This document shows, piece by piece, positions 44,004 to 52,728 of a stretch of DNA of 64,000 nt (positions within the stretch are counted from its first letter, which is position 1; the number at the start of each line of letters is the position of its first letter). The position numbers and the translations under genes are program-made. The notes beneath the pieces were generated by a model that worked only from the letters and a program-made list of their open reading frames with translations, did no database searches and had not been told where the DNA came from. The DNA is from Tilletia caries (taxonomy: Eukaryota; Basidiomycota; Exobasidiomycetes; Tilletiales; Tilletiaceae): assembly GCA_032718865.1 (NCBI GenBank), contig JALUTQ010000001.1, positions 186,001-250,000 of the forward strand, given 5' to 3'.

Positions 44004-45661
44004 TTACGGCCGCATCCTGGCGGGACTCCATCTGCGAATGGCCACCTCCCGGACGGACCACAGCTGGCCAGCTTTGAGTTGCTTGACCATCTCCTCTGGG
44101 CTGGACAGGTAGGACGTTGGCGTCCGTGAGAGGGCGGGGATGTGTACATGCGCCAGGATGAGAGTCTGAAGTGAGGCATGAAAGAGAGAAAGAGCATTGT
44201 TAGAAGGATTTGTTCCGCTCTCGCGATAGTACCACACACCACACAAAACCTCAGTCGTACCTTTTGGACGTGTGTGTTGACTCTGTTGTAGGTGTGGAAC
44301 TTGATCCAGTCGAGTTCACCGGAGCAGTTGAGCAGGGGAGTCTCGAAGGGGTACGACTTGGCATCCTCTGGATCTTCGTACACGGGAACGACGAGGACGG
44401 CAAATCTGCGGAGTGGAGATATTGGGCGGAAATGATTGTCAGGTTCAGGTAGTGAACATTTGATCCTTAGTCCGGGGGAGATAAGACTCACTCGGCATGC
44501 GAGAAGACGGGCCCGCGCTTGTAGATGAGCAAGTCGACACAGAATTTCAGGCCCGTCTTGACGACCCAGCCGAGGGAGCGGAAGTGGTGGTATGCGATGT
44601 AGTGCACGAGGAAAGGGTTGTCTGGTCGCAGATACGTGGTCGGTTGGACTGATGGCTGAGCCCGTACCGTGGGCGAGAGCGGGGAGCGGAGAAGGGTGTG
44701 ATATAGGTCTTCCAGGTGTAATAACCGATCCTGTTCAGAGAGCGAAGTGTGCCAGAGATTCCTCTTCAGAACCCGTATCTCCTTGAGGTTGCAAGAAAAT
44801 GGGAGTAGAAAAGAAGAGAAGACTCACTTGTTCGTCCCGCACATCCAGCACGCCGAGCATCCCAGCGAGGAAGAACGTCTCCTGCAATGAGAGTTGCATA
44901 CGCTCCAACTCGAGCAGGTCAAAGTCGTCCTCGTCGTTCGCCCCGTCTGGCACGATGTCCTCGAGTGAGGCCTGGGAGACGGCTTGTGGACCGGCTTGCA
45001 TCGATTGTCGGATCACATCGTCTGCGACTTTTCCCTTGCCCTTGGCGGTTGGTCTGAGATGGACCAGGCCGGGGACAAAGGTCCGGTAGCCCTCGTCGGC
45101 AAGACCGCTTCCTCCAGTCGTAGTCTCTCCCATCTGCTCTGTCCCTCCCTCATCCAGCTCATCGTCATCGAGGTCGTCCTCGAGGCTACCCCCAAGGGCA
45201 ACGATGCCATCCTTGAGCATGGTCCCCGCCTTGACGGCCAACTTGGCCCTCTCGATCTTCGCCTGCATGCGTTCCCTCCGTCTCCAAGCGGTCATTTCCT
45301 CCGGCGTGAGTTTGTCACTGCTGAGACGCCCCTGCTGACGTGCGCGTTGGATCTGGACGGAGGCGAGGGTACGAGTGTGCCAGGTGGGTTCGGAGCGGGA
45401 GAGGGTTCCTTTCCCGAAGAAACCGGCGTGCCAGAGGCCGAGGTTGTCGATGTGGGTCGCAGTTGAGGTGGACGCGGCGAAGTCGAGCCAGACGGTATTG
45501 AGGAGCGAGTCGTAGCGGGCGGTGAAGAAGGACGGCTGTTGCTGCTCCTGCTGTTGATGTGGACTGAAGATGCTGAGTGGGAGCAGACGCGCGTACAGTG
45601 ACTTCTTCTCATAGGTTGCGCGCTTGACTGCGCTGCCACGCGCTCCTGTGTTGGTTGCCAT
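44004..45661 (-). CDS. SEN2: tRNA-splicing endonuclease subunit Sen2
   Basis: Minus strand, ATG 45661 ([20 protein letters not shown]). Four exons: 45661-44828, 44730-44492, 44405-44261 and 44165-44004, each with GT-AG introns. Exon 1 holds the N-terminal domain ([18 protein letters not shown]). Exon 2 carries the nuclease fold: [20 protein letters not shown] followed by [14 protein letters not shown]. The Tyr of LIYKRGP and the His of FSHAE are eight residues apart, the spacing of the catalytic Tyr and His in yeast Sen2. The catalytic Lys is probably in RVNTHVQK at the end of exon 3. With Sen34, Sen54 and Sen15 it cuts the 5' splice site of pre-tRNA introns. Its start lies 140 bp from the transposon at 45802. 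Confidence 0.92.
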
Positions 45662-45795: not shown

Positions 45796-45801
45796 AACGC
45801 C
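45796..45801. repeat. Target-site duplication, left, of the integrase-type transposon
   Basis: AACGCC abuts the left TIR and recurs at 50886-50891. Confidence 0.88.
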
Positions 45802-45869
45802 TATGGAACGCCGTTTCGGCCACCTCATCAACAACCACGATCAACAACCAACGACCATCGACCATGAGC
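45802..45869 (+). repeat. Left TIR of the integrase-type transposon
   Basis: 68 bp, one mismatch against the inverse of 50818-50885 (CACCTCATC versus CACCTTATC). Both TIRs contain an inward-facing ATG (ATGGAACGCCG) followed by an open frame, so each could supply a leader or start for the inward-reading gene. Confidence 0.93.
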
Positions 45870-46503
45870 CCAAGCGAGAAGGAACAGCCAGCAGGGATCA
45901 GTCCCGATCACAAGCAGTGAGTATGAGCTCTTGCTCCTCCCTCTCCGCTGCACCAGCGACGCCCCAAGCTCGAGTTCCAAGACTGATCCTCGATGGCCCT
46001 CTTGTACAGACTACAGATTGATCACCAGACACATTTTGCAGAATGAAATGCACGGCCTGCGCGGTGGAGAGCAGCGCATCTCAGTCTCTGCCTTGAAGAC
46101 GACGCGCTGGTCCCCTATGCTTCTCCGGCGCGCTGGTCCTCTATGCTCTATGCTTCTCCTCCTTCATAGCTGACGCATCTTTCTTGCCTCCCACCACATT
46201 CTTCTGCAATCGCCTACCCTTTACCACCCTTCTGACCACTCTTCCCTCGACCCTGCTGCTGGTACGGCTCATCGTTCTTCTTCACGGTCCTCTTCTCCCT
46301 CTGCTTCACGTCCTCCATTGCTGCTCACTCGTCAGCCTGTCCGTCGGCCGCGTCCATCTCAACTCTCAAGTCAACATCAGGTGAATCTTGTTTGTTCTGT
46401 GTGTCCCTTACCTTACAGACTCACCGTGCCCCACTAACACTCACTACTCTCTCCGCCTGTATTCTAGCCTCTGCAGGCTGCAACAGGTAGCTTCCTCGTC
46501 AAA

Positions 46504-48483
46504 ATGAGCACCAGGTACAGCAACGACAATGAATACGATGATATTGCTAATCTCATGACGTCTGGACACAGCGACGTGAGTATATCCTCTAACCTCCCCC
46601 ACCTCATGCTGTTCACCATGCCACAATGCTGGAGTCTCTTATTCACTTACGCACACAACCCATTTTCAATCTCAGAATTCTTTCCAAAGCGGCAACGACA
46701 TGCGAGGGTCTCGGTACGAACGCTCTTCTCCTCTGCCTCGTCGCGACACGCACAGTTCATGCATGGGATGCGAGTCCCTCACGAGGGAGGTGGATTCCTT
46801 GCGTACAACTGTCGTCACCCTTGTCTCTCGGATTGAGACTCTAGAACAGACCTCTCAACTGTTTCCACAGAGTGAGCGAGAGATGGGAAAGTCTGGTGAG
46901 TATCTACGGACTGTGTTCTGCGAATGAGTAAGTCTTATGTGTTCTTATAGCAACCTCTACATCCCTGTAGCAGTGCGCAGTTTGTCTCCTGGTGGTCTCG
47001 GGTACGCCGACTCACGTCCGCGCGTGGGGTCTTCCTCGTCTTACGGGCAGATGGGTGCCGGATCTTCGCGTCTTGGATTCATTGCACCACGCCCAGTTTC
47101 TACCAGCGCTGCAGCTAGTTTGTCTGCCCGTCTGCATAAATCTACAGGCGGCATACGCACCGCAGCAGCCAAAGCGTCAGCATCAAGCTCTCCCTCAGTG
47201 TCATCGTTCAAAGACACCGTTAACCTCACTGACGGCGTCACTCTCGTCAAAGATCGACGACTTCTGGACCAGTCGATTGCTTCTCACACTGCCAATCGAG
47301 TGTTCAAAGATATCACGGAGCGGGAGAGACTTCAGGCATTTCCTGTCATCGGGAAAGGCTTCAATGCCGTACAAGTGTACAATGCCATCATCGAAGCCTT
47401 TCGCAAACAGAATCACGACCTAGTACGCGACGGTCAGAAGGGCTACGAGTGAGTCTACACTTCCGCACAGCGTTTACAGCTGTTGCCTCTTGACAACACT
47501 ATGATCGTCATTGCTCAGTATGTCATTCTCTATCTCCATCGTCTTCAGATTCTGTCGCCTGTTGAATCATTCCGCTCGATTGCAGACCCTCCGGTCTGAT
47601 CCACCCAGTATTACACTCACGGGAGTCGAGCTGGCCACAGAATACAAACGAAACAAGTGCTTCATTGTCGTGCGTTCAGACAAGAAATTCGACAAGTACG
47701 ACCCACTCCTCCATCAGCTCCTCGGTACCTCTGTGGACGACGACAGTCCTTTCGAATCGGCCGATGATAGCGACATCGACTTACCAGATATCACTCAAAG
47801 CGACCGCGCCTGGAAGAAGTGCGCGTTTTGCAAGGAGCTCATCGGTATCAAAGAGCACGCGGCTCACGAATATGAATGTGGTATAGAATGGAAGACTCAA
47901 AAGGTTTGTGCCTCGTGAGACTTCACATATTGATCTTATGGCTAGTGCTGATCATGACTTCTCTTCTTCTCAATCAAGGATCTTCGCAAAGAACTTGAAG
48001 ACCTCCGCAAGCAACGTGTCGCCGTGAAGGAGGAAGCAGAGACGGCAGCCGCGGCTTTGAACGAAGCAAACTCTCTTCCCAAAGGTTCTGTTTCCCTGCA
48101 GCCTCCCGCCGGTAGCTGCGCGTGTGGCGAGGCGGATGCGGGTGAGGTACGTGGTCGCCCCTTTCATTCAATGTGATATTCGTTCTGTTCATGATCTTCT
48201 TTTTGCATTACAGATGGTGGGTTGTGACGGAGCAGACTGCGAAGTCTGGCGCCATAAGAATTGCACCGAAGCTTTCCAGGGTTGGACCAGTCCCGAGAAC
48301 GACTGGTACTGCTCTTTTGGCTGTCTCAAAAGAGTCTCTTCAGCCGCGCATACCACGTCTGACGTTCTCCCCACGTCTGCTACTGATGCTGATGTGCCGC
48401 AGGCGACGAAGAGTCCCACCAAGCGAGCAAGCAGTTCCAACGCCCCTGCACAGCGATCAAGTACTCGTGTGCGCCGAACCTGA
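46504..48483 (+). CDS. Transposon-borne PHD-finger protein with zinc motif and coiled coil
   Basis: Probable start ATG 46504 (MSTRYSNDNEYDDIANLMTS), then a GTGAGT donor. Exon 2 has a Cys pair (SSCMGCESL) and a short coiled coil (LTREVDSLRTTVVTLVSRIE). Exon 3 has a Ser/Ala-rich part and DTVNLTDGVTLVKDRRLLDQ. Exon 4 ends with a C2HC-type zinc motif (CAFCKELIGIKEHAAHEYEC). Exon 5 is a helix (LRKELEDLRKQRVAVKEEAE) followed by CACGEADAGE, and the last exon gives MVGCDGADCEVWRHKNC and WYCSFGC. Together the last two exons form a PHD finger (C-x-C, C-x4-C, H-x2-C, C-x2-C) closest in layout to the ING-type fingers that read methylated H3K4. The stop is at 48481-48483. The exon 3/4 junction is not resolved. 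About 480 residues; chromatin or DNA targeting is inferred. Confidence 0.75.
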
Positions 48484-48536
48484 CGTGAGTGAAGTTTGGG
48501 TTGTTCTTCTGATTTGTCATAATGCCGAGCAATCTA

Positions 48537-50337
48537 CTAGATAAGGTCATTGATAGCATCCAACACATCTAGGTATGCGGTCAAGCCAAAATCTGCGGGA
48601 GGGGGAAATGGCGGATAAGGGAGGAGGAGTCGAAGAGCCGCGTGGGTGCTGGGCTCATTCAGCACCGGAGGAACCCGCTCGCTGATTCGGTCGACGCGCA
48701 CATGGGGTTGCTCGCCCTGTCTCTCAGATCGCCATCCGTCTAGACCGTAATCCTCCCAGCCCTCAATGTCGAGTCCAACCTCCTGCATAGCTGCCCTCTC
48801 CGCCATATCGAGTAACCCAACATCGTAGCCGCGTCGAGCAGCGTCCCATGCCCCTTCAGAAATGAATATGTGTTCAGAATCAGTGTGTCTGTTCTCTGAT
48901 GTGTAACGATTCGCTCTGACAGTACTAACCTTGGAGAAACATCTGTTCGGGTGTCTGGTTACCCAGGCCCGGTGTCCGCATCTTGTGATTGTTCCACATG
49001 CGAACGAAGTGCTCGAGGGCGCCATTCAGCTGCGGGAGAAAGACGAAGTGCAGAGCCCACAGATGCACATCGCAATCAACGTCTAGGACTCTCATCTCCT
49101 CCAGGTGTTCAAACCATGCTCTGTATTTTTTTGGTCGTCCATTTCTGTACGTCGACCCACAGACGCTCAATCCTCTGATTTCGCGTAGAGGGACCTTGAA
49201 TGAAAGACCCTCGACCGAAACCTACACGGCCCAAGTGTGAGGGTTGAGAAGTTCAAGTGTGATCAATGACAATGGTAAGGACAGACGACGGTGTGTGAAC
49301 AGCAGATACGCACCTCGGTATTCTTCCATCAACTTAAGAACACCCATGTTCTCCCCGCCATGGTCTCCTCGTACCCTGCTGGGCGATCCGCGAGCTTGAA
49401 CGGCCTCGAGGAAGAGAGCTGCGACAGTGTTGGCTCGATTGTTGCTACTTGCGCGCAAGAAAGTAACGAGCCTGGACTTCCCGTCGATCGCTCCATGTAT
49501 AACAATCTTCCACTTGATAAGTTTGTGGTGGCCGTCCATGTGCCACAAGGAATTTACGAAAGGCACGTAGTACTGCCGACGTTTGAGGTGCCGCGCCCAT
49601 CGGGGATTCTGTGAGATAGGGTCCGTAGCCTGCACGATTCGCCGCAGACGTGCCCGGCTGATCCTCAGTCCTTGACTGCGCAGAGCACCCCACGTGCCTC
49701 GCTCGCCGACGTCCTCACTGTGCATTGTCTGTAGCTGGGTTATGATCTGAGAGGAGTGAAGTGGAGAGTTGGAGTCAGAACTAACCATAGAACAGGTCAC
49801 AGGAGTCGTCCTGCGCATCAATCACCAAGACTCGCTACTCACGCTGCTCAACTCCTCATCGGACAAGTCTCGATCATTCCACCGTTGCAGGTCCAGCTCG
49901 ACCCTGCGCCTGCGCAAAGTCCGCTCCGAACACCCTAGAAATAGGGCGCTATCTTTGTCCGAGAAGCCGAGCTCGAGAAGCTCGATCAGAAGATCGACGG
50001 GCAAATGAATCTTCATCTGTCCGGCCTCCGTCCTAACCCATTCGCGAGAGCCAGTGGCAGCGTCCTCTTCTATGTGTCCCGCGCGTTTGATTTCGTGCAA
50101 GCGTGCCTCGAGACAGAGGATGGGCTGAACGATAGCATCGAAGACTCGTGGGTGGATTTTGTTGGCCATGAGATGCAATGACACCAACAGCTCCTCGACT
50201 GACAGCATATGTGTCAGGAGCGCAGTCTCCGAGTGTATCGCGCTGCTGATAAATGAGGTGATGGGGCCGAGGAGGGCGTAGATATCCAGTCGCAGCTCAG
50301 CAATCTCTGCGGCATCCATCGAAGAGGGAGGAGACAT
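48537..50337 (-). pseudogene. Integrase-type DDE transposase, one apparent frame break
   Basis: Minus strand; start taken at ATG 50337 (MSPPSSMDAAEIAELRLDIY), although the frame is open further upstream. The N-terminal part ends in a helix-turn-helix (LGFSDKDSALFLGCSERTLRRRR), with an intron after DEELSS. The catalytic core begins RRQYYVPFVNSLWHMDGHHKL, giving the first Asp, then HGAIDGKSRLVTFLRAS, then VRGDHGGENMGV with the second Asp. The Glu is in GPSTRNQRIERLWVDVQKW (about 49195-49140). Immediately after, a T7 run on the plus strand (49126-49132) shifts the frame, and the rest continues as AWFEHLEEMRVLDVDCDVHL and WNNHKMRTPGLGNQTPEQMF to the stop at 48537. All catalytic residues are present. 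This is an rve/IS3-like family widespread in basidiomycetes. It would cut and join element ends in the nucleus. Confidence 0.85.
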
Positions 50338-50817
50338 GCGATTTGCGAAAGACGAGGATGTGAACCGCAAACGGAAAGGTGAGACGGTGGGCTGCAGAGG
50401 GCCTGGGACGTGCCGAGAAGCGCAAGCGAAAATGGATGTGATCAAGAGTGCTGTATGAATATGATACGCAGTGAAAAGACAGTTGTCAGTGGCAGCAGTT
50501 TCAAAATGAGAGTGCGGATGTATCATGTACTGACCAGGCTGATGGGGAGTGAGCACGAAGAAGGAAGGTACTGAGAGCAGTGGCGGCGGCGGCGCAGCAA
50601 CGAGGAGGGCGGCAGCGAGCGCAGCGACGAGAAGGGCAGCGAGCGCAGCGGTTGCTGTTGAGGCGTCTAACCACGAATAAAAGGGAGTCAGAATCGTGAA
50701 ATTTGCGCAGTACAAGCGGAGAAGAACAAGAAAGAGAGAGGGGGAGGTACTGGGAGAGAAGAAACGCACTCACCTGTATGTATTTGTCGCTCAATGCTTG
50801 ACTATGGCAGCGGTTCT

Positions 50818-50885
50818 GCTCATGGTCGATGGTCGTTGGTTGTTGATCGTGGTTGTTGATAAGGTGGCCGAAACGGCGTTCCATA
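50818..50885 (-). repeat. Right TIR of the integrase-type transposon
   Basis: Inverse of 45802-45869 with one mismatch. It ends 40 bp before the CSN6 start codon. Confidence 0.93.
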
Positions 50886-50891
50886 AACGCC
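50886..50891. repeat. Target-site duplication, right, of the integrase-type transposon
   Basis: AACGCC, identical to 45796-45801. Confidence 0.88.
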
Positions 50892-50925: not shown

Positions 50926-52728
50926 ATGGCAGCAGCAAGCAGTCCGCTCATTCTCCAGCGCAGTGCGCATGCGCGCTCAGCAGCAGGGAGCAGCGCACTC
51001 GGCAGCACGTCCACTGCACCGGCCGTAGCCGCAGCAGGCACAGGCGGGCGCACAACCAACCTTGCCATTCACCCACTGCCCATCCTCAACATGTCAGAGC
51101 ATCACACCCGCTTCCGCTCTCAGGCTGGCCACGACAATGTCCATGGTGAGACTTTGTCCACATCAGTCCCAAATCCTGTGCTGTGGTCCCCCGTGGTACT
51201 GACTTCGCTTCGTCTCCCCGCAGTGTACGGTATTCTGCTTGGCACTCAGCAGGGTCGCGAGATCGAGCTCCATAACTCGTTTGAGATCGTGCTGGTCGAT
51301 AACAAGGCAAACAAGGACTCAATATCAGCGTCGGCCCCAAAGGTGGACCACGACATGCTCAAGGCGCGTCAAGACCAGTGTGAGTTGTGGCTATTGGGGC
51401 TATCGTACAAATCCTGAGTGCTGAGCGCTGAGCAATCGGAGAGGATCGATAGTCAAGCAAGTTTTTCCCTCCTTCGAAATCATGGGCTGGTACTCAAGCG
51501 GGCCGGAACCAAATGAGCGCGATATGACAATCCATAAACAGGTAGGTTTGTGACCAAGTCAGATTGACGCAAGTCGTAGCCCCTTACTCAGAGCTGACAA
51601 CACCTTGAGTTCACAAACTATCCCCAGTTGCTCGCATACAATGAGACGCTCCTCTTCCTCAAGCTGTCTCCATCACATCTGGACAACGATCCATCTGCAG
51701 CATCGTCCGACTCAAGCGCCGTGCCCAAGCGCGGAGACGATGATCTGCCACTCTATGCATACGAAACCGTACTGGAAGTCGCAGGGCCGAGCAAGAAGGA
51801 CGCAACGTCCACATCAGCAAGCAGTGCAGACGCCGGGAAGCAAACGGACGAAGAGGCGGAGTCTATGCATGTCCTGTGGGCGCCTTGTGGCTATCGGATC
51901 GAGACGGGCGAGGCTGAGCGGATTGCTGTCGACCATGCTAGCAAGCCTCCCGAGAGCGGAAGTGGCGAAGCGACTTCCTGTCAGTTTGCAGATCGACGAA
52001 GATCAAAGAATGGTACTCGTCTTGGGACGATAAACCCTATACTGACTCGCCTTCCATTGTCCCTCTCTTCGAAGTGATTGCCAATCTGACGACTCAGTAC
52101 AACGCCGTCAAGATGCTCTCCGATCGGGTCCGGGCAGTCTCGCAGTACATCGCCCTTGTTCAGAGTGGCGCTTTCCCACGCGATCACGAGACATTGCGAC
52201 AAGTGCGCGCTTTGGTCAGCTGCCTTCCCGTCGTCGGAATGCCCGAGCTCAAAGACGAGATTATCGAGGTACGCTCTCTCTCTCTTTCTCTCGTCGTACA
52301 GTCCATGCCTCGTGGCGTAAGCCCAAGTGACTTCTAACATTCTTTGGACCATCCGCCTTCTTTGCACATAGGAGTACAACGATGTATTGCTCACTTCATA
52401 CCTGTCAAACCTGACGCAGCAAGTCACGAATCTCAACGAGGTGAGCCTCTTCCACCCCAAGCTGTTTCTGTTCAAATTATTTTGTTTTCTCCCGCGGTGT
52501 TCTGACAAAGAATCTGTGCATCTTGCGGATGTGTTTCAGCTGGTCGACAAGTTTGACGTCACGCAGGAGCCAAACGGAGCGAACGCCGCGGGCGGACTGT
52601 TCGGCGGCGGGCTCGGTGGACCCAGACGCATGCCCCGACTTGCACCGACATCACTGCAGCATGGAATGGGCGGCAGCAGTACACTCGGCGGTGGCGGCAA
52701 TCTCGGTGGTGATGCTGACGGCTGGTAG
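50926..52728 (+). CDS. CSN6: COP9 signalosome subunit 6
   Basis: ATG 50926 (MAAASSPLILQRSAHARSAA). Exon 1 ends at 51145, exon 2 is 51224-51379, exon 3 is 51453-51541 and exon 4 starts at 51628; two or more further exons lead to the stop at 52726-52728. The MPN domain reads VYGILLGTQQGREIELHNSF, then QVFPSFEIMGWYSSG and DMTIHKQ. The metal-binding JAMM residues are not evident, as in the catalytically inactive MPN subunits. The C-terminal helical part has NLTTQYNAVKMLSDRVRAVS and LPVVGMPELKDEII, then a Gly-rich tail. CSN6 pairs with CSN5 in the complex that removes Nedd8 from cullins. The end of exon 4 (either TCCT|GTCAG or AATG|GTACTC) is uncertain. The start codon is only 40 bp from the transposon's right end. 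Confidence 0.92.

What the first reader, a model, noticed from the sequence alone, without database searches (positions are those of the whole stretch)
45802..50885. Two-gene integrase-type transposon with a PHD-finger partner protein
Seen: 68-bp TIRs with one mismatch, a 6-bp target duplication (AACGCC), a DDE integrase-type transposase and a second, convergent gene ending in a PHD finger with all eight zinc ligands, both fully inside the TIRs. Known: chromodomain fusions guide some retrotransposon integrases to chromatin. I know of no description of an IS3-like eukaryotic DNA transposon with a separate PHD-finger gene. If the pair is conserved across copies, this is a new transposition system.
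Basis: partly seen in the sequence, partly recalled or inferred. Interest (0 to 1): 0.88.

Follow-up and report, generated by a model that had tools for sequence, protein, structure and literature searches.

The report
Jumping gene with chromatin-reader partner
A wheat-bunt fungus carries a family of cut-and-paste jumping genes whose DNA-cutting enzyme has long been inherited together with a second protein that often ends in a PHD finger resembling known histone readers, a layout like that of the ancestor of our own antibody-gene recombinase and possibly a way of choosing where to land.

Summary
45802-50885 is a transposon with 68-bp inverted repeats (TATGG..CCATA), a 6-bp target duplication, an integrase-type (rva_4) transposase and a convergent gene B with an eight-ligand PHD finger. 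Termini, duplication and transposase type fit the known superfamily IS3EU, so the element class is not new. The partner seems to be: my literature searches (open-licence papers only) showed no PHD partner for IS3EU. In this genome (Tilletia caries, by two contig lengths) 30 of 39 transposase loci have gene B nearby, all 30 convergent, and 30 of 31 gene-B loci lie near a transposase. The two genes co-diversified (Mantel r 0.89). Eight-ligand PHD fingers were read in four families; others look split by introns, one family's is degenerate and one lacks it, so the PHD is common, not obligatory. The PHD's closest solved relatives are ING-type histone readers, and insertions cluster near putative gene starts (13 of 18 versus 29% expected; one heuristic background). 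Best reading: gene B is a transposition cofactor whose PHD steers insertion to promoter chromatin, a layout like RAG1-RAG2 without shared ancestry. Pairing is shown; targeting is inferred.

The parts
45796..45801 (.). target-site duplication AACGCC, left copy
45802..45869 (+). left terminal inverted repeat, 68 bp, starts TATGGAACGCCGTTTCGGCC
46504..46575 (+). gene B exon 1 (N-terminus)
   Evidence: the same N-terminus in T. caries/laevis P0001
46676..46895 (+). gene B exon 2; corresponds to a helix in the low-confidence model of the T. indica homologue
46971..47448 (+). gene B exon 3, first part of the conserved core
47549..47903 (+). gene B exon 4, core plus a C2HC zinc finger at 47820-47879
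   Evidence: splice site corrected against P0001 and P0002
47979..48146 (+). gene B exon 5, includes the first two PHD ligands (PHD begins at 48117)
48214..48483 (+). gene B exon 6, rest of the PHD finger (to 48324) and tail, stop at 48483
48537..48853 (-). transposase exon 4 (C-terminal region)
48930..49221 (-). transposase exon 3 with the catalytic E; reading frame shifts inside this exon in the window copy
49314..49746 (-). transposase exon 2 with the two catalytic D residues, PF24764 rva_4
49843..50337 (-). transposase exon 1, weak helix-turn-helix matches (E 0.027 and 0.097)
50818..50885 (-). right terminal inverted repeat, 68 bp, ends GGCCGAAACGGCGTTCCATA
50886..50891 (.). target-site duplication AACGCC, right copy
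44735..45661 (-). flanking ORF whose start codon lies 140 bp from the left end
   Evidence: no Pfam match at E 0.01
50926..51417 (+). flanking ORF (JAB/MPN domain), start codon 34 bp beyond the right TSD: the element sits between two divergent ORF starts about 175 bp apart

Best explanation
This is a two-gene element of the IS3EU superfamily in Tilletia caries; the window copy itself is probably inactive because its transposase is out of frame. The integrase-type transposase cuts and joins the TATGG..CCATA ends and leaves 6-bp duplications. Gene B is a dedicated second transposition protein, inherited with the transposase since before the families in this genome split. Its N-terminal helix and fast-evolving core, with a C2HC zinc finger, probably bind the transposase or its DNA complex. 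Its C-terminal ING-like PHD finger probably reads the methylated tail of histone H3 at promoters and so brings the integration complex to the 5' ends of active genes. Shown: the ends, duplications, convergent gene pair, its conservation and co-diversification, the likeness of the F1-type PHD to ING fingers, and an excess of insertions near putative gene starts. Inferred: that gene B acts in transposition, that its core touches the transposase, and that the PHD reads H3K4me3 and directs insertion.
For: Element structure. Five delimited families hold both genes between matching TIRs with perfect 6-bp TSDs: F1 AACGCC, F2 GTTCGC, F5 GAGACT, F3 CACCTG, F4 GTATCG. 30 of 39 transposase loci paired within 10 kb (27 within 5 kb), 30 of 30 convergent, 30 of 31 gene-B loci paired (loci grouped by hand). 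Same three groups in both trees; Mantel r 0.888, reached by 17 of 40,320 permutations. Eight-ligand PHD in F1, F3, F4 and F6 and in the T. indica protein P0002, 51% identical over its whole length. P0002's PHD matches ING4 (1wen) at 3.5e-7, best of 37 sequences at E up to 1; the strongest are ING-family PHDs, with TAF3, KDM5B, SPP1, CXXC1 and BPTF among the weaker ones; that these read H3K4me3 is recalled. Insertion sites: 13 of 18 within 350 bp of a >=150-aa ATG ORF reading away, against 0.292 expected (P 0.0002); 3' ends not enriched, 6 of 18 against 0.252. The window element lies between divergent ORF starts ~175 bp apart. One informative copy pair shows purifying selection on both genes: F2 C36 v C27, dN/dS 0.30 (transposase) and 0.50 (gene B), Fisher p 1.3e-5 and 0.029.
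Against: F2 has spread (seven places; one with a perfect TSD) with a gene B that has no recognisable PHD, and F5's PHD is degenerate, so the PHD is not essential for movement. Pfam's PHD model stays below its cut-off (16.4 of 24 bits in P0002, 9.3 in P0123). P0123's PHD matches ING2 only at E 0.044. Weaker hits of P0002 include PHDs not known to me as H3K4me3 readers (AF-10, SIZ1). The insertion test uses ORFs as stand-ins for genes, 18 sites, and one 59-kb background; the 10 sites of other families alone give P 0.04-0.17, and sites inside long open frames are not clearly depleted (7 of 18 against 0.455). Recent copy pairs carry no clear selection signal (F5 gene B 1 synonymous to 5 non-synonymous; F1 gene B 0 to 2). 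AlphaFold models were useless (mean pLDDT 36). Gene-B homologues were found only in Tilletia (2 and 4 proteins), in word-limited searches.
Confidence: 0.55

Rival explanations
1. Gene B is a transposition cofactor, but its PHD-like finger binds the transposon's own terminal DNA or holds the complex together, as the PHD-like cysteine-rich domain of piggyBac transposase does, and has nothing to do with histones.
For: piggyBac's CRD has a PHD-like cross-brace fold, binds transposon-end DNA and is essential (PMC8086355, passages). The TIRs are long, with room for such sites.
Against: The TIR core TATGGAACGCCGTT is shared by PHD-bearing F1, F3 and F4 and by PHD-less F2 and degenerate F5 (F2-F5 were delimited with that core, and it was also seen in other transposase loci), so recognition of the outermost bases does not follow the PHD. 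The F1-type PHD resembles ING readers.
Confidence: 0.17
2. Gene B protects or activates the element (anti-silencing or transcription at its own promoter) rather than steering insertion, comparable to the TET/JBP genes carried by fungal transposons.
For: Fungal IS3EU and other transposons carry TET/JBP dioxygenases thought to counter methylation silencing (PMC12730594, passages and part of one section). A histone reader could recruit transcription factors.
Against: Insertions cluster near putative gene starts, which anti-silencing does not predict by itself. No enzymatic Pfam domain over its cut-off was found in four gene-B proteins.
Confidence: 0.2
3. Gene B is a passenger: a host gene fragment caught by one ancestor and carried along without a role in transposition.
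For: Gene B evolves much faster than the transposase (28% against 75% identity between F1 and F2), and recent copies carry no clear selection signal.
Against: Kept near 30 of 39 transposase loci and in three deep groups with the same orientation, with the C2HC zinc ligands conserved at 16-47% identity between families; purifying selection in the one informative pair.
Confidence: 0.06
4. Insertion near gene starts is a by-product of open chromatin or of selection against insertions in coding DNA; the PHD plays no part in choosing sites.
For: Many DNA transposons prefer promoters (recalled). The ten sites from other families are not classified by PHD status.
Against: 3' ends, equally free of coding constraint, are not enriched, and sites inside long open frames are not clearly depleted. 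This does not separate open chromatin from histone reading.
Confidence: 0.35

Closest known systems
IS3EU superfamily of eukaryotic DNA transposons (Repbase; not separated from GingerRoot in Kojima 2023, PMC10045372)
   Same: TA..TA termini, TAYGG..CCRTA in the rust members described, 6-bp TSD, integrase-like DDE transposase without the retroviral HHCC motif
   Different: a convergent second gene with a C2HC finger and often a PHD finger; 'PHD' does not occur in the main text of either Kojima paper
TET+ IS3EU elements of rust fungi (Kojima 2025, PMC12730594)
   Same: same superfamily, 6-bp TSD; transposase and second gene in opposite orientations
   Different: their partner is an alpha-kinase plus a TET/JBP dioxygenase; no alpha-kinase match among four gene-B proteins at E up to 10. 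Whether the partners are related was not tested otherwise
RAG-like transposons (RAG1L/RAG2L, ProtoRAG; PMC7204232)
   Same: transposase gene and a convergent partner gene, in many cases ending in a PHD finger, between TIRs
   Different: RAG2L has a kelch propeller core and RAG1L is a Transib-related transposase with 5-bp TSDs; nothing here shows common descent
Ginger1 (PMC2836005) and Rehavkus (PMC6446971)
   Same: transposases associated with a PHD finger
   Different: the PHD is part of the transposase protein, with Ulp1 in one listed Ginger1 family; other transposase types and TSDs
ING-family PHD fingers (ING4, PDB 1wen)
   Same: spacing and sequence of the eight-ligand finger, 3.5e-7 by sequence
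   Different: only the PHD matches; found inside a transposon gene; the tyrosine of the ING methyl-lysine cage (recalled) is serine in F1

Membership tests
IS3EU | TA..TA termini, in described fungal members TAYGG..CCRTA | tested here: met
   TATGG..CCATA in the window element and in F2-F5; definition from passages of PMC10045372 and PMC12730594
IS3EU | 6-bp target-site duplication | tested here: met
   11 of 12 complete elements perfect (window, six non-autonomous, F2-F5; miss L009), and 7 of 10 further elements
IS3EU | integrase-type DDE transposase without an upstream HHCC motif | tested here: met
   PF24764/rve; no CxxC upstream of the first D in the string, read by eye
IS3EU | transposase groups with Repbase IS3EU transposases in a tree | not testable with these tools
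   Repbase sequences are not held; only Pfam and protein-database relatives were seen
IS481EU | TSDs of about 4, 15 or 25 bp and a single encoded protein | tested here: not met
   6-bp TSD and two genes (definition)
Ginger1 | CCGG/CCGT TSD (recalled) and PHD or protease domain in the transposase protein | tested here: not met
   6-bp TSDs without CCGG; PHD on a separate gene
RAG-like transposon | RAG1/Transib-type transposase and 5-bp TSD | tested here: not met
   rva_4 integrase core, 6-bp TSD (definition)
RAG-like transposon | partner with a kelch propeller, in many cases followed by a PHD | tested here: not met
   no kelch match in P0002, P0123, P0124 or P0125 at E up to 10; a PHD is present in P0002 and P0123
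H3K4me3-reading PHD | binds trimethylated H3K4 | not tested
   sequence relatives are ING-type fingers; cage only partly matched; needs a binding assay

The most novel reading that the evidence does not exclude
Probability: 0.4. Interest if true: 0.85.

Novelty: new variant of a known kind. Interest (0 to 1): 0.68.

Why it matters
Why some transposons land in promoters is often unexplained, and the best-known recombinase with a histone-reading partner, RAG, is studied mainly in its domesticated form (both recalled). Here one genome holds related element families with an intact, degenerate or missing PHD, so the contribution of a histone reader to site choice could be measured by comparing families. 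It would also be a second origin of the RAG-like layout of a transposase plus a convergent PHD partner. For annotation: the part of the published repeat table of this species' assembly that I saw gives 283 DNA transposons and names no IS3EU class (PMC10684912, passages), while the TIR core alone occurs 184 times, that is, 184 element ends.

Tried and rejected
Host-gene reading of gene B: rejected, 30 of 31 loci lie near a transposase. Structure prediction of two gene-B homologues: mean pLDDT 36 in both, so no fold search was run. dN/dS between recent copies: too few changes; pairs within F3, F6 and F7 were not run. Pfam on gene B: no named domain over its cut-off. A Rad18-type ubiquitin-binding finger for the C2HC motif (spacing resembles it, recalled): no Pfam match, not claimed. 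Homologue search of gene B beyond Tilletia: none found, but these searches need shared 5-residue words. The first gene-B query carried a wrong acceptor at exon 4, corrected. Alpha-kinase partner as in rust IS3EU: no match. Two regular expressions for the PHD were too strict and were widened. Rows left out of the gene-B loci: C39:1543860 and C34:1359638 (PHD region only, also PHD-family hits) and C7:2567359 (E 0.022).
Full report
What is there. The window is C1:186001-250000 of a 38,104,258-base, 40-contig genome. Two of its contigs have lengths 2,689,501 and 1,798,756, exactly the largest contig and the N50 given for Tilletia caries TC1_MSG (PMC10684912, passages). The totals differ a little (38.18 Mb and 46 contigs in the paper), but I take it to be that assembly. 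At 45802-50885 lies a 5,084-bp element with 68-bp terminal inverted repeats (one mismatch), ends TATGG..CCATA and the 6-bp duplication AACGCC. On the minus strand four exons encode a transposase of the PF24764 rva_4/rve type with D, D and E spaced 56 and 34 residues apart. On the plus strand six exons encode a 520-aa protein, gene B: an N-terminal part with a probable helix, a Ser/Ala-rich stretch, a core, a C2HC finger, and a PHD finger with all eight ligands interrupted by one intron. The genes converge. Exon borders are my reading of splice sites, checked against database proteins, not transcripts.

Copies. The left end finds 17 matches in the genome. They give a second full-length copy at C1:1703359-1709076 (99.3-99.5% identical, no TSD, with a 629-bp insertion made of 2.3 copies of a 275-bp unit in the last exon of gene B), six non-autonomous copies of 1,874-1,921 bp sharing only about 160-175 bp at each end, each with a perfect 6-bp TSD, and a fragment on C40 bordered by telomere-like repeats. 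The window copy's transposase is out of frame in exon 3. The assembly is nanopore-based and polished with short reads, so an assembly error cannot be excluded. A 99%-identical T. caries protein (P0003) is open through this region.

Other families. PF24764 matches in the genome, 82 in all, were grouped by hand into 39 loci. Gene-B matches were grouped by hand into 31 loci, the weakest at E 0.0087 (C40:1591066); three rows that look like host PHD genes or noise were left out (named under Tried and rejected). Pairing by position: 30 of 39 transposase loci have a gene B within 10 kb, 27 of them within 5 kb; all 30 pairs converge; 30 of 31 gene-B loci are paired (exception C32:27346-28197). Of the nine transposase loci without a match, two (C7:192640, C5:1424019) show, by eye, a convergent gene with PHD-like pieces split by introns, the second less clearly; one is a copy of family 2 that matches only in the transposase part of the stretch held; six are short or broken matches. 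The tool calls its counts lower bounds.

Delimited elements. The TIR core TATGGAACGCCGTT occurs 95 times forward and 89 times in reverse (control 0 and 1, only the first 100 places listed). Together with the held sequence it delimits four more families with perfect 6-bp TSDs, each holding both genes: F2 C11:5781-14955, F5 C5:962496-967905, F3 C7:600515-605408, F4 C21:1036356-1040869. So five families in all hold both genes inside matching TIRs. The other paired loci were not delimited. Ten further TIR-core elements gave 7 of 10 perfect TSDs.

Is the PHD always there? Eight-ligand PHD fingers were read in F1 (window, across one intron), F3 (C7, C39), F4 (C21) and F6 (C15, C36:1242k, C40); the second F1 copy keeps the same finger's later part. 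Pieces of a finger split by introns, read by eye, are seen at C25:806.8k, in F7 (C22, C5:1273k, C6), at C1:473k, C7:192k and, less clearly, C5:1423k. F5 lacks the middle ligands in the frame that I read. F2, at seven places, has gene B with the C2HC finger; neither reading of C36 and C11 nor the wider pattern over the six F2 stretches held shows a PHD, and the database protein P0124 also ends without one. The seventh (C11:38.8k) was not read. Since the PHD is present in all three groups of the tree, loss in F2 is the simplest reading (inference).

Age and selection. From eight matched pairs (F1-F7 and T. indica; the T. indica pairing of P0002 and P0004 is assumed), identity matrices of transposase core and gene-B core correlate at r 0.888 (17 of 40,320 permutations reach it), and both trees give the groups (F1, T. 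indica, F2), (F5, F7) and (F3, F4, F6). Order inside the last group differs between the trees. Gene B changes much faster: 28% against 75% identity between F1 and F2. dN/dS: F2 C36 v C27, transposase 0.30 (27.5 synonymous, 27.5 non-synonymous) and gene B 0.50 (15, 26), Fisher p 1.3e-5 and 0.029. Four other F2 pairs gave 0.32-0.63 and 0.12-0.44 on few changes. The F5 pair gave 0.62 and 1.49 (gene B 1 synonymous, 5 non-synonymous). The F1 pair gave 0.74 for the transposase and 0 synonymous, 2 non-synonymous for gene B. Only the C36-C27 pair is informative, and it is of the PHD-less family. Selection on the PHD itself rests on the conservation of its ligands between families.

What the PHD resembles. 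Against solved structures, the T. indica gene-B protein matches 37 sequences at E up to 1: ING4 at 3.5e-7, then other ING PHDs, with PHO23, YNG1, png2, TAF3, KDM5B, SPP1, CXXC1, AF-10, BPTF and SIZ1 at weaker values; many are H3K4me3 readers (recalled), not all. P0123 of F3 matches ING2 only at 0.044. In the window PHD the methionine and tryptophan of the ING cage are kept and the tyrosine before the first cysteine is serine (residue roles recalled, sequence). Histone reading is therefore likely but not shown.

Where the elements land. The window element sits between ORF starts at 45661 (minus) and 50926 (plus, a JAB/MPN protein), about 175 bp apart without it. For 18 insertion sites (eight F1-type, one of them without a TSD, and ten other TIR-core elements, three of them without a perfect TSD) I asked whether an ATG-ORF of at least 150 aa reading away begins within 250 or 350 bp. 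Observed 11 and 13 of 18, expected 0.242 and 0.292 (P 0.0009 and 0.0002); with 180 aa and 350 bp, 9 of 18 against 0.216 (P 0.0074). ORF ends are not enriched: 3, 6 and 4 of 18 against 0.160, 0.252 and 0.150; sites inside long open frames 7 of 18 against 0.455. F1 sites alone: 5-7 of 8, P 0.0016-0.017; the other ten alone: 4-7 of 10, P 0.04-0.17. I regard this as suggestive.

Comparison with the known. IS3EU is defined by TA..TA termini and usually 6-bp TSDs (PMC10045372, passages); the rust members described end TAYGG..CCRTA (PMC12730594, passages and part 1 of section 9). The element meets the criteria that I could test. Rust IS3EU elements with TET genes have an alpha-kinase gene opposite the transposase, so a second, oppositely oriented gene has precedent. 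A PHD partner was not seen in searches: these are listings of open-licence papers; of the 35 papers that name IS3EU (30 listed) I searched the main text of two for 'PHD'; Repbase Reports are not held. The closest working parallel is the RAG-like transposon with convergent RAG1L and RAG2L, the latter often with a C-terminal PHD, which in sea urchin binds H3 methylated at K4 (PMC7204232, passages). Defining features of that family (Transib-type transposase, 5-bp TSD, kelch core) are not met, so the likeness is of layout, not descent.

Verdict. The pair is real, old, and inherited as a unit; it adds a conserved second gene to IS3EU, at least in Tilletia. A histone-guided choice of promoter sites is the best single mechanism, at about even odds, with TIR binding, anti-silencing and plain open-chromatin preference as rivals. 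The rival odds overlap and are not meant to add to one.

Noticed in passing
L009 5410-6038 (G000:C1:1705909-1706537): 629-bp insertion in gene B of the second F1 copy, 2.3 copies of a 275-bp unit holding a stretch like a tRNA B box by eye; perhaps a SINE in tandem. ARAGORN found no tRNA.
   Followed up: partly
L010-L015: Six non-autonomous elements of 1.87-1.92 kb share only ~160-175 bp at each end with the autonomous F1 element; their ~1.5-kb interiors gave no match to it and are unexplained.
   Followed up: no
G000:C11:10600-14955 (L071): The delimited family 2 element holds about 4 kb more beyond gene B, with a fragment resembling a LINE reverse transcriptase by eye; extra genes or a nested insertion.
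   Followed up: no
L016 4250-4408 (G000:C40:2014749-2014907): F1 end fragment that stops beside TTAGGG-type repeats.
   Followed up: no
G000:C32:27346-28197: Gene-B homologue with no transposase match nearby, the single unpaired locus.
   Followed up: no
window 47820-47879 and the gene-B cores of F2-F7: C2HC finger in gene B: CxxC-x11-HxxxC in F1, F2, F3 and F6 and a shorter HxC end in F4, F5 and F7; spacing like the Rad18 ubiquitin-binding finger (recalled); kept in F2 where the PHD is missing, though one T. controversa protein (P0125) lacks the last cysteine.
   Followed up: partly
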